A DNA stretch of 64,000 nucleotides, from positions 2,976,001 through 3,040,000 of the forward strand of contig NZ_CP094529.1 of NCBI RefSeq assembly GCF_022811665.1. The letters run 5' to 3'. Numbering within the stretch: the stretch's first letter is position 1; the number at the start of each line of letters is the position of its first letter. The position numbers and the translations under genes are program-made. The stretch comes from Chryseobacterium oryzae. GTDB lineage: Bacteria > Bacteroidota > Bacteroidia > Flavobacteriales > Weeksellaceae. Shown in pieces: positions 45,361-48,061 of the stretch. Under the pieces are notes generated by a model. That model worked only from the letters and a program-made list of their open reading frames with translations. It had not been told where the DNA came from and ran no database searches.

Positions 45361-46584
45361 ATGTATTCAATTATAGATATAGAAAGTAATGGTGCAGGTT
45401 TCAGAAAAGAATGCATTATAGATATCGCCATTTATCGTTATGACGGTCACAAAATTGTAGATCAGTTTATTTCTCTGGTAAACCCCGAAAGCGATATTAC
45501 TCCTTTTGTACAGAAACTTACCGGTATTACGCCCAAAATGGTGAAAACAGCACCGAAATTTCACGAACTGGCAAAAAGAGTGGTAGAAATTACCCAAAAT
45601 ACAACTTTAGTAGGACACAATATTGATTTCGATTACAGAATGTTGCGGCAATCGTTCAGCAGACTCGGCTACGATTTTAAAATCAACACCTTAGATACAA
45701 TTCCTTTAGCCAAAAAACTGATTCCGGATGAAGCAAGTTATTCTCTTCAAAAGCTGGTAAAATCTTTGGGAATTCCGTTAACCAACGCTCACAGAGCAGA
45801 TGGCGATGCAAGAGCTACTCTAGAACTTTTTAAACTTCTTGTTTCTAAAGATACAGAAAATGAGATTATACAGAAGCAGCACGAAGAGAGCAACGCAAAG
45901 AATTACATCAACAAAATCAAAGAATTAACTCAGGATTTACCTCACGAAAAAGGATTTGTTTATTTTCAGAACAGCGATGGTAAAATTGTTCTTTCCGACT
46001 ATGTTCAGGATGTTAATAAATATTCCAAAAAACTGTTCAATTCCAAATCCAAAAAATGGGAAAAGGTACAAAATGATACAGAGCAGATTCATTTTGAACT
46101 TACAGGCTCTGATATTATTGCAAAACTGATGTTAAATTCTAAAGGAATCAAGAAAAGAGAAGTATTTCCTTATGGTTTATATTTTAGAAATCAGAAATAT
46201 ATTGTAGAAAAAAATAATCTGAATAAAGAAGAAAAACCTATTCTTAAATTCAAGGCTTTTACACAAGGAATGAAGGCAGTGCATTTCATCAACGAGAATG
46301 AGGAGTTCAAAACGCCAGAAAATCTTTCAAAAAAAATAGATTTTAGAAAAAGAAATGAAATTTGGCTTGGATCAGGAAAAAAAATGGGAGAAAAACTTTT
46401 TATCGTTATTAAAAACGGAAAGCCAGAATCCTATGGTTTTTATGAACTTTTCACCCAAATTCAAACCTTGACTAAAGTTTCTAAACTGAAAATAGATTTA
46501 CCACTTCCTGCTTCAGATTTAATTAGTGACCTGCAATTGGCTTTGCTTCGTGGTGATTTCGAAACACTTCCGTTACCACAATAA
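45361..46584 (+). CDS. DnaQ-like 3'-5' exonuclease with an unknown C-terminal domain
   Basis: 407 residues. The DEDDh exonuclease domain occupies about 1-170: Asp6 and Glu8 in IIDIESNG, HNIDFDYRML, and AHRADGDARATLEL with the catalytic His and Asp. It matches the DNA polymerase III epsilon-like group. The remaining 230 residues, starting near QDLPHEKGFVYFQ (a GIY-YIG-like entry but without the YIG), are a domain I do not recognise. A short A/T hairpin lies at the stop. The large C-terminal domain makes it unlikely to be the polymerase proofreading subunit itself. Confidence 0.85.
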   Translation: MYSIIDIESNGAGFRKECIIDIAIYRYDGHKIVDQFISLVNPESDITPFVQKLTGITPKMVKTAPKFHELAKRVVEITQNTTLVGHNIDFDYRMLRQSFSRLGYDFKINTLDTIPLAKKLIPDEASYSLQKLVKSLGIPLTNAHRADGDARATLELFKLLVSKDTENEIIQKQHEESNAKNYINKIKELTQDLPHEKGFVYFQNSDGKIVLSDYVQDVNKYSKKLFNSKSKKWEKVQNDTEQIHFELTGSDIIAKLMLNSKGIKKREVFPYGLYFRNQKYIVEKNNLNKEEKPILKFKAFTQGMKAVHFINENEEFKTPENLSKKIDFRKRNEIWLGSGKKMGEKLFIVIKNGKPESYGFYELFTQIQTLTKVSKLKIDLPLPASDLISDLQLALLRGDFETLPLPQ

Positions 46585-46607
46585 AAAATGTTATTGCTAG
46601 CATTTTT
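46584..46607 (+). terminator. Weak A/T-rich hairpin after the exonuclease gene
   Basis: AAAAATG (46584-46590) and CATTTTT (46601-46607) pair around a 10-nt loop. If functional, it separates the exonuclease gene from the lysA leader. Confidence 0.35.
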
Positions 46608-46629
46608 CTTTCATATAAAAAAGAAATAG

Positions 46630-46637
46630 TATTTTTG
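46630..46637 (+). promoter_or_regulatory. -7 element (TATTTTTG) of the lysA leader transcript
   Basis: Exact TAnnTTTG match 19 nt before the leader-peptide ATG at 46657. It predicts transcription starting near 46643 and so a leader RNA of about 160 nt before lysA. Confidence 0.5.
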
Positions 46638-46656
46638 CTAAAAATTAAACAGAGCA

Positions 46657-46728
46657 ATGCAAAATTTTAAACAAAATAAAACCGGAAAAAAGGGAGCTGT
46701 AAAGTTCTCTAAGGTTTGGAATATTTAA
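46657..46728 (+). CDS. Candidate lysine-rich leader peptide of lysA
   Basis: A 23-codon open frame (MQNFKQNKTGKKGAV, then KFSKVWNI) with its own ATG and TAA, in the 222-bp exonuclease-lysA spacer. Six of 23 residues are Lys, five of them in codons 8-19, including a Lys-Lys pair. The stop codon overlaps the left arm of a helix (46727-46734) that competes with the terminator at 46757-46790. This is what a ribosome-mediated attenuator for a lysine biosynthesis gene would look like. It could also be a chance frame in AT-rich DNA; no homologue is known to me. Confidence 0.55.
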   Translation: MQNFKQNKTGKKGAVKFSKVWNI

Positions 46729-46770
46729 AAGAGTAGCTTGCATAAAATAATCATTGCGGCAGACTCTTTT
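46727..46770 (+). promoter_or_regulatory. Candidate antiterminator helix of the lysA leader
   Basis: AAAAGAGT (46727-46734) is the exact complement of ACTCTTTT (46763-46770), extendable by two G-U pairs and one A-U pair. Its right arm is the upper half of the terminator's 5' arm, so the two structures exclude each other, apart from a pseudoknot. Its left arm begins inside the leader-peptide stop codon. Confidence 0.55.
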
Positions 46771-46790
46771 GGAAGAATCTGCCGTTTTTT
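46757..46790 (+). terminator. Intrinsic terminator/attenuator before lysA
   Basis: CGGCAGA (46757-46763) pairs with TCTGCCG (46778-46784). Inside, TCTT pairs with AAGA around a TTGG loop after one mismatch, and TTTTTT follows. It ends 16 bp before the lysA ATG, too close to be only a terminator of the distant upstream gene. Confidence 0.85.
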
Positions 46791-46806
46791 ATGTTAAAAT
46801 GAAATT

Positions 46807-48006
46807 ATGAATTCAAAAGATTTACTTAAGATTGCCAATGAATTTGGCACGCCGTTGTACGTTTACGACGCAGATTCGATTAAAGCTCAATACGAAACAC
46901 TTTCTTCGTCTTTTCTAAAACACACTAAGTTTTTTTACGCAGCAAAAGCTTTAACCAACATCAACATCTTAAAGTACATCAAAAACCTAGGTGCTTCTTT
47001 AGATTGTGTTTCCATTAATGAAGTAAAACTTGGCTTAAAAGCGGGCTTCACCAAAGAAAAAATACTTTTCACTCCCAATTGTGTAGATTTAGCCGAAATT
47101 GAAGAAGCAATGCATCATGGAGTGCATATCAATATCGACAACATTTCAATTTTGGAACAGTTTGGGAATAAATACGGAAATTCTTATCCTATTTTTGTGA
47201 GAATTAACCCACACATTTATGCGGGAGGAAATCACAAAATCTCTACAGGACATATTGATTCTAAATTCGGAATTTCTATCCACCAGATGCGACACATTGA
47301 GCGTGTTATGAAATCTACGAACGTTAATGTTGAAGGTCTTCACATGCACACGGGAAGTGAGATTAAAGATCCTGAAGTTTTCATCCAAGCATTAGAAATC
47401 ATGCTGGATTTAGCAGAAAATTTCCCAAATTTAAAATATCTGGATATGGGGAGCGGTTTCAAAATTCCTTATCAGGAAAGCGAACTGGAAACCGATGTAA
47501 AAACTTTAGGCAAAAAAGTAGAAAAAGTACTTTCGGAATACGCTAAAACTACCGGAAGAAAGTTTGAACTTTGGTTTGAACCGGGAAAATTTTTAGTAGG
47601 AAAAAGCGGCTATCTTCTGGTGAAAGCTAATGTAATTAAACAGACTACGGCGACCGTTTTCGTGGGAGTGAATTCGGGATTCAATCACTTAATTCGTCCG
47701 ATGTTTTACGATTCATATCATGAGATTGAAAACCTTTCTAACCCTAAAGGTGCCGAAAGAATATATACCGTTGTAGGAAATATTTGTGAAACCGACACAT
47801 TTGCATGGGACAGAAAACTGAATGAAGTAAGAGAAGGCGATATTCTGGCTTTTCACACCGCAGGAGCTTATGGTTTTGAGATGAGTTCTAATTTCAATTC
47901 CCGATTAAAGCCTGCTGAAGTTCTATTTTTAGACGGAAAAGCTCATCTTATCCGAAAAAGAGACGAATTTGAAGATTTACTGAGAAATCAGATAGAAGTT
48001 TTATAA
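46807..48006 (+). CDS. lysA: Diaminopimelate decarboxylase
   Basis: Last step of lysine biosynthesis: PLP-dependent decarboxylation of meso-diaminopimelate, in the cytosol. 399 residues, group III decarboxylase fold. PLP Lys47 (FYAAKALTN), the HMHTGSEI loop, the DMGSGFKIPY glycine turn, FEPGKFLVG, and the substrate-site CETDTFA are all present. The preceding 150 bp look like a transcription attenuator with a Lys-rich leader peptide. It is followed by its own terminator, so it is a single-gene unit. Confidence 0.96.
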   Translation: MNSKDLLKIANEFGTPLYVYDADSIKAQYETLSSSFLKHTKFFYAAKALTNINILKYIKNLGASLDCVSINEVKLGLKAGFTKEKILFTPNCVDLAEIEEAMHHGVHINIDNISILEQFGNKYGNSYPIFVRINPHIYAGGNHKISTGHIDSKFGISIHQMRHIERVMKSTNVNVEGLHMHTGSEIKDPEVFIQALEIMLDLAENFPNLKYLDMGSGFKIPYQESELETDVKTLGKKVEKVLSEYAKTTGRKFELWFEPGKFLVGKSGYLLVKANVIKQTTATVFVGVNSGFNHLIRPMFYDSYHEIENLSNPKGAERIYTVVGNICETDTFAWDRKLNEVREGDILAFHTAGAYGFEMSSNFNSRLKPAEVLFLDGKAHLIRKRDEFEDLLRNQIEVL

Positions 48007-48029
48007 TTCAAGTTCAATAAAGGTTTCAG

Positions 48030-48061
48030 GAACTTCATTATTTATAGTGAAGTTCTTTTTT
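48030..48061 (+). terminator. Intrinsic terminator of lysA
   Basis: GAACTTCA (48030-48037) and TGAAGTTC (48048-48055) pair, with further inner pairs, followed by TTTTTT. Confidence 0.88.

What the first reader, a model, noticed from the sequence alone, without database searches (positions are those of the whole stretch)
46630..46806. Candidate lysine-responsive transcription attenuator in front of lysA
Seen: a TATTTTTG -7 box, then a 23-codon frame with 6 Lys codons (five in codons 8-19, including a Lys-Lys pair), then AAAAGAGT starting in the stop codon. ACTCTTTT follows, inside the 5' arm of a strong terminator (7+4 bp, TTGG loop, T6) that ends 16 bp before the lysA ATG. The 8-bp helix and the terminator exclude each other. 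Inference: with enough lysine the ribosome reaches the stop, covers AAAAGAGT, and the terminator forms. With scarce lysine it stalls at the Lys codons, the antiterminator forms and lysA is read. This is the classic trp/his logic, on a lysine gene in a phylum without Shine-Dalgarno starts. I know of a Bacteroidetes trp leader motif but not of a lysA peptide attenuator. A small hairpin after the upstream gene suggests the strong terminator belongs to lysA.
Basis: partly seen in the sequence, partly recalled or inferred. Interest (0 to 1): 0.8.

Follow-up and report, generated by a model that had tools for sequence, protein, structure and literature searches.

The report
Lysine-sensing RNA switch before lysA
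A short stretch of DNA in front of a lysine-making gene in Chryseobacterium and its relatives encodes a tiny lysine-rich peptide and foldable RNA parts that very probably let the ribosome itself switch the gene on when lysine is scarce, a trick that is classic for other amino acids but that I did not find described for lysine.

Summary
A 23-codon frame with six Lys codons (46657-46728), AAAAGAGT starting in its stop codon, and a terminator ending 16 bp before lysA are present. The frame stands before lysA in 67 of the 80 closest named loci. A covariance model finds it in 177 of 296 genomes of the window's family, 8 of 33 genera, one match per genome. The frame is under coding selection (dN/dS 0.22) and two Lys positions are kept in 51 of 52 distinct peptides. 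Terminator and antiterminator covary between genera. In 46 hand-picked leaders the antiterminator is possible with a ribosome at the last conserved Lys codon in 46 and at the stop in 0. Best explanation: a ribosome-mediated, lysine-responsive transcription attenuator of lysA. The leader has probably been lost several times. No convincing copy was seen outside the family, with 9 of 18 weak outside matches opened. Response to lysine in cells is untested. New member of a known kind.

The parts
46630..46637 (+). TAnnTTTG-type -7 box (TATTTTTG) of the leader promoter
   Evidence: In 97 of 98 leaders, 16-29 nt before the leader start; background 3.1% of 53-nt stretches of the window. A -33 TTG was found in only 21 of 97.
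46657..46728 (+). leader peptide frame, MQNFKQNKTGKKGAVKFSKVWNI*, 6 Lys codons
   Evidence: Present in 67 of the 80 closest named lysA loci; dN/dS 0.22 over 57 distinct frames, against pN/pS of 1.55 and 1.10 in the other two frames.
46654..46671 (+). region 1: leader start-codon region, 5' arm of the protector helix
   Evidence: MFE of the leader pairs it with 46724-46741. Swap test: native -11.6 against swapped -7.8 kcal/mol in 15 representatives, P 5e-5. Touches the start codon in 41 of 46 leaders. As a bare duplex, the window's own best register lies further 3' and misses AAAAGAGT.
46691..46710 (+). hairpin H0 inside the frame (8 bp, 4-nt loop); likely RNA polymerase pause hairpin (inferred)
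   Evidence: -9.4 kcal/mol, 0 of 200 shuffles as good; 90.6% of cells paired, 3 of 8 pairs with changes on both sides.
46724..46741 (+). region 2: 3' arm of the protector and 5' arm of the antiterminator (AAAAGAGT 46727-46734 is its core)
   Evidence: In bare-duplex calculations the two pairings share at least 3 nt of region 2 in 42 of 46 leaders; the window, L002, L166 and L219 are the exceptions.
46757..46772 (+). region 3: terminator 5' arm plus loop, 3' partner of the antiterminator (ACTCTTTT 46763-46770)
   Evidence: 93.2% of 190 cells paired, 11 double-change cells against 4.4 shuffled.
46757..46790 (+). intrinsic terminator: 7+4 bp stem 46757-46784, T6 46785-46790
   Evidence: 95% of cells paired in the terminator helix over 32 diverse leaders.
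46807..48006 (+). lysA, diaminopimelate decarboxylase
   Evidence: TIGR01048, E 3.2e-117, above cut-off.
48028..48057 (+). terminator-like hairpin after lysA, so lysA is probably transcribed alone
   Evidence: Pattern scan; not tested further.

Best explanation
This is a ribosome-mediated transcription attenuator that senses charged lysyl-tRNA and controls lysA. SHOWN by sequence and comparison: a Lys-rich leader frame under coding selection; an intrinsic terminator before lysA; an antiterminator that excludes it; a protector helix that competes with the antiterminator; and geometry in which a ribosome at the conserved Lys codons leaves region 2 free while one at the stop does not. INFERRED: transcription starts just after TATTTTTG. 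Polymerase pauses near hairpin H0 until the first ribosome disrupts it. With enough lysine the ribosome reaches the stop, covers region 2, and the terminator forms. With scarce lysine it stalls at a Lys codon, region 2 pairs with region 3, and lysA is transcribed. Without translation the start-codon region pairs with region 2, so the terminator forms and the default is off.
For: Conservation in front of lysA: 67 of 80 named loci; 177 of 296 family genomes at E<=1e-5, one match per genome, with a model trained on some of them; one real copy in the window's genome, next best E 1.8. Coding selection: dN/dS 0.22. Lys share 25% in 52 distinct peptides against 9.1% in 51 long frames of the window; Lys at relative positions 0 and -7 in 51 of 52 each, at -11 in 39 of 52. 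In the window, position 0 (codon 19) leaves all of AAAAGAGT free while Trp 21 does not. Geometry over 46 hand-picked leaders: antiterminator duplex of -7 kcal/mol or better in 46 with the A site at the last Lys codon, in 30 two codons later, in 0 at the stop. Covariation: one antiterminator pair is C-G in 19 and U-A in 9 of 32; 11 double-change cells against 4.4 shuffled; H0 plus terminator 45 against 14.5. Swap tests: protector P 5e-5 and antiterminator P 0.014 in 15 representatives, control pair P 0.47; in all 46, P 5e-5 and 0.00045. The untranslated leader folds with the terminator in 45 of 46 and the protector in 44 of 46. No Rfam match at gathering score in the window.
Against: No expression data. 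Lys is not kept everywhere: in the 50 distinct frames, codon 8 is Gln in 10 and Arg in 2, and codon 16 is Arg in 7. One peptide has only 4 Lys (L222) and one has Glu at position 0 (L217). Non-Lys residues (G at -6 in 52 of 52; F at -2 and S at -1 in 47 of 52 each) are also conserved, so part of the conservation may serve hairpin H0 or a nascent-chain function. Only 32 of 46 antiterminators beat 95% of letter shuffles. The number of pairs with a change on both sides does not exceed shuffles (6 against 4.8; 2 against 1.6). Three of 32 leaders (L180, L204, L214) have C/A at the covarying antiterminator pair. In bare-duplex calculations the window is among 4 of 46 leaders whose protector and antiterminator do not overlap; its MFE register does. 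The -33 element is weak (21 of 97). Leader absent from 13 of 80 loci. Swaps and shuffles do not correct for relatedness. The 12-nt ribosome edge is assumed from general knowledge.
Confidence: 0.87

Rival explanations
1. The peptide acts as a regulated arrest peptide: its conserved KG..FSK core stalls the ribosome in response to lysine or another ligand, instead of simple shortage of charged tRNA-Lys.
For: G at -6 is kept in 52 of 52 distinct peptides, F at -2 and S at -1 in 47 of 52 each; V, W and N at +1, +2 and +3 in 29 of 52 each.
Against: The conserved non-Lys residues at -6, -2 and -1 are encoded by the arms of hairpin H0, which covaries. Residues after the core differ between genera (VWN, ENS, ANS, GIS, KPV). 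It does not explain the Lys enrichment of the N-terminal half.
Confidence: 0.08
2. The hairpin is a constitutive terminator or insulator for the upstream exonuclease-type gene, and the Lys-rich frame is a by-product of A-rich DNA.
For: A-rich intergenic DNA; the leader is absent from 13 of 80 loci, so lysA can do without it.
Against: Promoter box before the leader in 97 of 98; coding selection; alternative, co-evolving helices; the upstream gene is followed by a small hairpin of its own at 46585-46606, though it is weak (11 of 200 shuffles as good for the stretch).
Confidence: 0.03
3. The leader responds to translation in general (global slowing or ribosome-targeting drugs) and not to lysine in particular.
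For: Any slow ribosome before about codon 20 would free region 2.
Against: Lys enrichment to 25% and near-invariant Lys at two positions; the regulated gene makes lysine.
Confidence: 0.02

Closest known systems
trp and his leader-peptide attenuators of enteric bacteria (details recalled; overview passages of PMC1183508 seen)
   Same: Short frame rich in codons for the regulated amino acid, terminator, antiterminator and protector pairing as alternatives; gene of the same pathway downstream.
   Different: Lysine as the sensed amino acid; Bacteroidota; promoter of TAnnTTTG type; the protector uses the leader's start-codon region, and there is an additional hairpin inside the frame. [quoted passage not shown] 'lysine' has 0 occurrences in its main text.
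Lysine riboswitch (L-box) and T-box control of lysine genes (T-box for lysine recalled)
   Same: Control lysine genes by alternative RNA structures; PMC1262725 names L-box riboswitches for lysine (passage).
   Different: No Rfam match at gathering score; here the apparent sensor is a Lys-rich reading frame.
Bacteroid-trp RNA (RF01692, Bacteroidetes)
   Same: Listed as a probable cis-regulatory RNA of Bacteroidetes (table passage of PMC2864571).
   Different: Not matched in the window; different gene and amino acid by its name.
Proposed Thr/Lys-rich leader SEP5 in Sinorhizobium (PMC10117765, passage seen)
   Same: Short frame with six Thr and three Lys codons in the 5'-UTR of an aspartate-related gene, suggested as a leader peptide.
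   Different: Mainly Thr; no terminator or antiterminator in the passage; another phylum and gene.
Leader-peptide attenuation clues in Flavobacterium psychrophilum (PMC9723704, passage seen)
   Same: A flavobacterium; the paper reports strong clues for leader-peptide attenuation upstream of amino-acid biosynthesis operons.
   Different: Its main text has 0 occurrences of lysine or lysA; its supplement could not be opened here, so an overlap cannot be excluded.

Membership tests
Ribosome-mediated (leader-peptide) transcription attenuator | Short translated frame between promoter and gene | tested here: met
   Frame conserved, dN/dS 0.22 against pN/pS 1.55 and 1.10 in the other frames; translation itself not measured.
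Ribosome-mediated (leader-peptide) transcription attenuator | Enrichment and conservation of codons for the pathway's amino acid | tested here: met
   25% Lys against 9.1%; positions 0 and -7 Lys in 51 of 52 peptides; codons 8 and 16 are looser.
Ribosome-mediated (leader-peptide) transcription attenuator | Intrinsic terminator between frame and gene | tested here: met
   Hairpin plus T-run in 46 of 46 hand-picked leaders; covariation.
Ribosome-mediated (leader-peptide) transcription attenuator | Antiterminator that excludes the terminator and is set by ribosome position | tested here: met
   46 of 46 at last Lys codon, 0 of 46 at stop, 32 of 46 better than 95% of letter shuffles; covariation.
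Ribosome-mediated (leader-peptide) transcription attenuator | Protector pairing that frees the terminator when the leader is untranslated | tested here: met
   Swap test; present in the MFE of 44 of 46 untranslated leaders.
Ribosome-mediated (leader-peptide) transcription attenuator | Promoter upstream of the frame | tested here: inconclusive
   -7 box in 97 of 98, -33 TTG in 21 of 97; no 5'-end data.
Ribosome-mediated (leader-peptide) transcription attenuator | Read-through rises when the amino acid is scarce | not testable with these tools
   Needs an experiment.
Lysine riboswitch (L-box) | Conserved aptamer recognised by the Rfam model | tested here: not met
   No family at gathering score in the window; 5 sub-threshold matches in 46500-46900, none a riboswitch.
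T-box leader | Conserved T-box structure recognised by the Rfam model | tested here: not met
   Same scans.
Bacteroid-trp RNA (RF01692) | Match to the Rfam model | tested here: not met
   No family at gathering score in the window.

The most novel reading that the evidence does not exclude
A lysine-specific leader-peptide attenuator, a class not described before, seen only in one family of Bacteroidota. Its logic is default-off: the leader's own start codon sits in the protector helix, so an untranslated leader shuts both its own translation and lysA, and an in-frame hairpin times polymerase against the ribosome. It has been lost several times within one genus, which makes it a natural series for studying how attenuators decay.
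Probability: 0.5. Interest if true: 0.7.

Novelty: new member of a known kind. Interest (0 to 1): 0.62.

Why it matters
RNA control of lysine genes is known by riboswitch (PMC1262725) and by T-box (recalled). Since attenuation needs close timing of polymerase and ribosome, a working case would bear directly on whether transcription and translation are coupled in Bacteroidota. Many natural variants, and relatives that lost the leader, allow tests without any design work.

Tried and rejected
A first pattern for the frame was badly written and matched 1 locus; replaced. An automatic terminator finder picked the antiterminator in several leaders because of T-runs in the loop; redone with a position limit. 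Model R2 over 395 genomes of the order matched 67 at E<=0.05. 18 of these are outside the family, best E 3.4e-5; I fetched 9 of the 18, and 7 of 16 second-site or weak matches inside the family (16 loci). By reading the listed frames, 15 of 16 are a gene end followed by an ordinary terminator and one (L249) is an intergenic stretch with terminators; I recognised no lysA beside them, without a BLAST check. The window genome's aspartate kinase and dapA show no Lys-rich leader by eye; other dap genes were not checked. Pfam finds no match at E<=1 for the window's peptide and only a sub-cut-off one for a relative's. The finished leader's MFE with a ribosome at Lys 11, 16 or 19 prefers the terminator (at Lys 12 the antiterminator); the antiterminator is favoured in all four if judged before the terminator's 3' arm is made, as attenuation models assume. 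Papers: 9 searches listed nothing recognisable as a lysine leader-peptide attenuator; 'diaminopimelate decarboxylase' with 'attenuator' and 'leader peptide' gave 0 papers. The library lacks most subscription journals; Lopatovskaya 2010 was seen only in a reference list. PMC4833913, PMC11282234 and PMC6386406 were opened for passages and add nothing on lysine control.

Selection told: the 46 leaders were picked by hand from about 111 leader loci read (67 named, the window, 20, 5 new, 18; some near-identical), leaving out near-copies; alignment A3 holds 32 of the 46, and the 15 swap-test representatives were also picked by hand.

Full report
WHAT IS THERE. The window is from a Chryseobacterium-like genome: the nearest named lysA proteins are 97% identical (C. 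echinoideorum and C. binzhouense). Between an exonuclease-type gene (45361-46584; DnaQ-like matches) and lysA (46807-48006, TIGR01048) lie, in order: a TAnnTTTG box (46630-46637), a 23-codon frame (46657-46728) with Lys at codons 5, 8, 11, 12, 16 and 19, AAAAGAGT (46727-46734), and a terminator (stem 46757-46784, T6 46785-46790). No Rfam family matches at gathering score.

CONSERVATION. One search kept the 80 best of 576 lysA relatives in named genomes; 67 of the 80 carry the frame and 13 do not. In the 50 distinct frames Lys 5, 11, 12 and 19 are invariant, Lys 8 is kept in 38 and Lys 16 in 43. A model of sequence plus terminator (R1) hit 149 of 296 family genomes at E<=0.01, one hit each; the window's genome has one. 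Reading the DNA upstream of lysA in other genera showed strongly diverged relatives, several of them in genomes that R1 missed, for example MKVLNSIKKVASKGKKFFSKAYSVE*, MSAVVTFKKVSSKGKKHFFKGISVT*, MNAILKIKSTSSKGKKHFPKAKKWSYSKELQ* and a TTG-started (M)KTVYASKKGMKKGSKKFSKKPV*. Of 34 upstream regions, 8 show a leader by eye and 26 do not; of 30, 18 do and 12 do not. A second model (R2), built from 32 diverse leaders and so biased towards them, hit 177 of 296 family genomes at E<=1e-5, in 8 of 33 genera; lysA itself was found in 279 of 296. That the match lies just before lysA was checked for the 67 named loci and 20 fetched ones, not for every model match. In 395 genomes of the order R2 found nothing convincing outside the family (9 of 18 outside matches opened; strict filters can lose weak matches).

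THE FRAME IS CODING. Over 57 distinct 23-codon frames the in-frame dN/dS is 0.22; simple counts in the two other frames give pN/pS 1.55 and 1.10. One leader has a 6-nt insertion that keeps frame (L153). Lys makes up 25% of 52 distinct peptides, against 9.1% in 51 long frames of the window. Aligned on the last conserved Lys (0), Lys is found at 0 and at -7 in 51 of 52, at -11 in 39 of 52. Gly at -6 (52 of 52), Phe at -2 and Ser at -1 (47 of 52 each) are also conserved; they are encoded by the arms of hairpin H0, so their conservation may be for the RNA.

FOUR RNA ELEMENTS. (1) Terminator and (2) hairpin H0 inside the frame: on 32 diverse leaders 93.0% of 557 cells are paired (shuffled 86.1%), with 45 double-change cells against 14.5; sliding the partner lowers pairing to 45-69%. 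The number of pairs with a double change (6) does not exceed shuffles (4.8). (3) Antiterminator: 93.2% of 190 cells paired, 11 double-change cells against 4.4; one pair is C-G in 19, U-A in 9, U-G in 1 and unpaired (C/A) in 3 of 32 leaders. Only 32 of 46 antiterminators beat 95% of letter shuffles of their own segment. (4) Protector: the leader's start-codon region pairs with the antiterminator's 5' arm. Its sequence differs between genera, so I tested it by swapping arms between leaders: in 15 hand-picked representatives the native mean is -11.6 kcal/mol, swapped -7.8, P 5e-5 (the floor of 20,000 permutations); the antiterminator gives -11.5 against -10.3, P 0.014; a control pair of regions P 0.47. 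In all 46 the values are -11.1 against -8.2 (P 5e-5) and -11.7 against -10.7 (P 0.00045). Swaps and shuffles do not correct for relatedness. As bare duplexes, protector and antiterminator share at least 3 nt of region 2 in 42 of 46 leaders and the protector touches the start codon in 41. The window itself is one of the 4 without overlap as a bare duplex (with L002, L166, L219); in its full-leader MFE region 1 (46654-46671) does pair with 46724-46741, across AAAAGAGT.

GEOMETRY. Assuming that a ribosome shields about 12 nt beyond its A-site codon (general knowledge, not measured here), region 2 in the window is free with the A site at Lys 11, 12, 16 or 19, and largely covered at Trp 21 and the stop. 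Over 46 leaders an antiterminator duplex of -7 kcal/mol or better (my threshold) is possible in 46 with the A site at the last Lys codon, in 30 two codons later, in 0 at the stop. The untranslated leader folds with the terminator in 45 of 46 and the protector in 44 of 46. So three ribosome states predict three outcomes: stalled at Lys, on; at stop, off; absent, off.

MECHANISM. From these facts the likely working is classic attenuation by lysyl-tRNA charging, with default-off when the leader is not translated and H0 as a probable pause hairpin (inferred from its place, by recalled analogy with trp). No step has been shown in cells.

EVOLUTION. On a lysA tree of 84 rows the leader's presence needs 8 changes (shuffled mean 13.2; only 2 are forced by well-supported branches), so several losses within Chryseobacterium are likely but not proven. 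All 13 leaderless named loci have a TAnnTTTG box ending 38-44 nt before lysA instead.

PRIOR WORK. PMC1262725 (passage) says that lysine genes are controlled by L-box riboswitches in other species and names attenuators for his, thr and phe. PMC1183508 (passages) lists known attenuators without lysine. [quoted passage not shown] PMC9723704 (passages) reports leader-peptide clues upstream of amino-acid operons in Flavobacterium psychrophilum without naming lysine. PMC7366714 (passages) mentions leader-like short frames in Bacteroides. PMC10117765 (passage) suggests a Thr/Lys-rich leader in Sinorhizobium. Nine paper searches listed nothing recognisable as a lysine-specific leader-peptide attenuator; the library is open-access only, and an earlier survey in a subscription journal could hold one.

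VERDICT. It is a new member of a known kind, with lysine as the sensed amino acid and a start-codon protector as its distinguishing features.

Noticed in passing
L003, L017, L019, L034, L039, L057, L060, L064, L065, L069, L070, L075, L076, upstream of lysA: These 13 of 80 named lysA loci lack the leader; all 13 carry a TAnnTTTG box ending 38-44 nt before lysA, often followed by a similar AAGAAGTTT stretch. The leader seems to have been lost several times.
   Followed up: partly
L171 and L212, leader frames: The leader frame runs 12 codons past the last core Lys, through the antiterminator arm, before its stop, so a ribosome would open region 2 by passing over it and not by resting at a stop.
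   Followed up: no
L222, leader frame (MNRSSAAPMISLAGKKFSSKKPGAN): A drifting leader with only 4 Lys codons whose RNA pairings are still predicted; it may be on the way to loss or may sense something else.
   Followed up: no
L155 (TTG start) and L211 (GTG start): Leader frames that appear to use non-ATG starts, which may lower leader translation and favour the default-off state.
   Followed up: no
window 46585-46606: Small A/T-rich hairpin after the exonuclease-type gene, perhaps its own terminator; weak (11 of 200 shuffles of the stretch fold as well).
   Followed up: partly
L235-L240: Model R2 repeatedly matched a gene end followed by a strong terminator in Chryseobacterium (E about 3e-5 to 4e-4); a look-alike to beware of when searching with this model.
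   Followed up: yes
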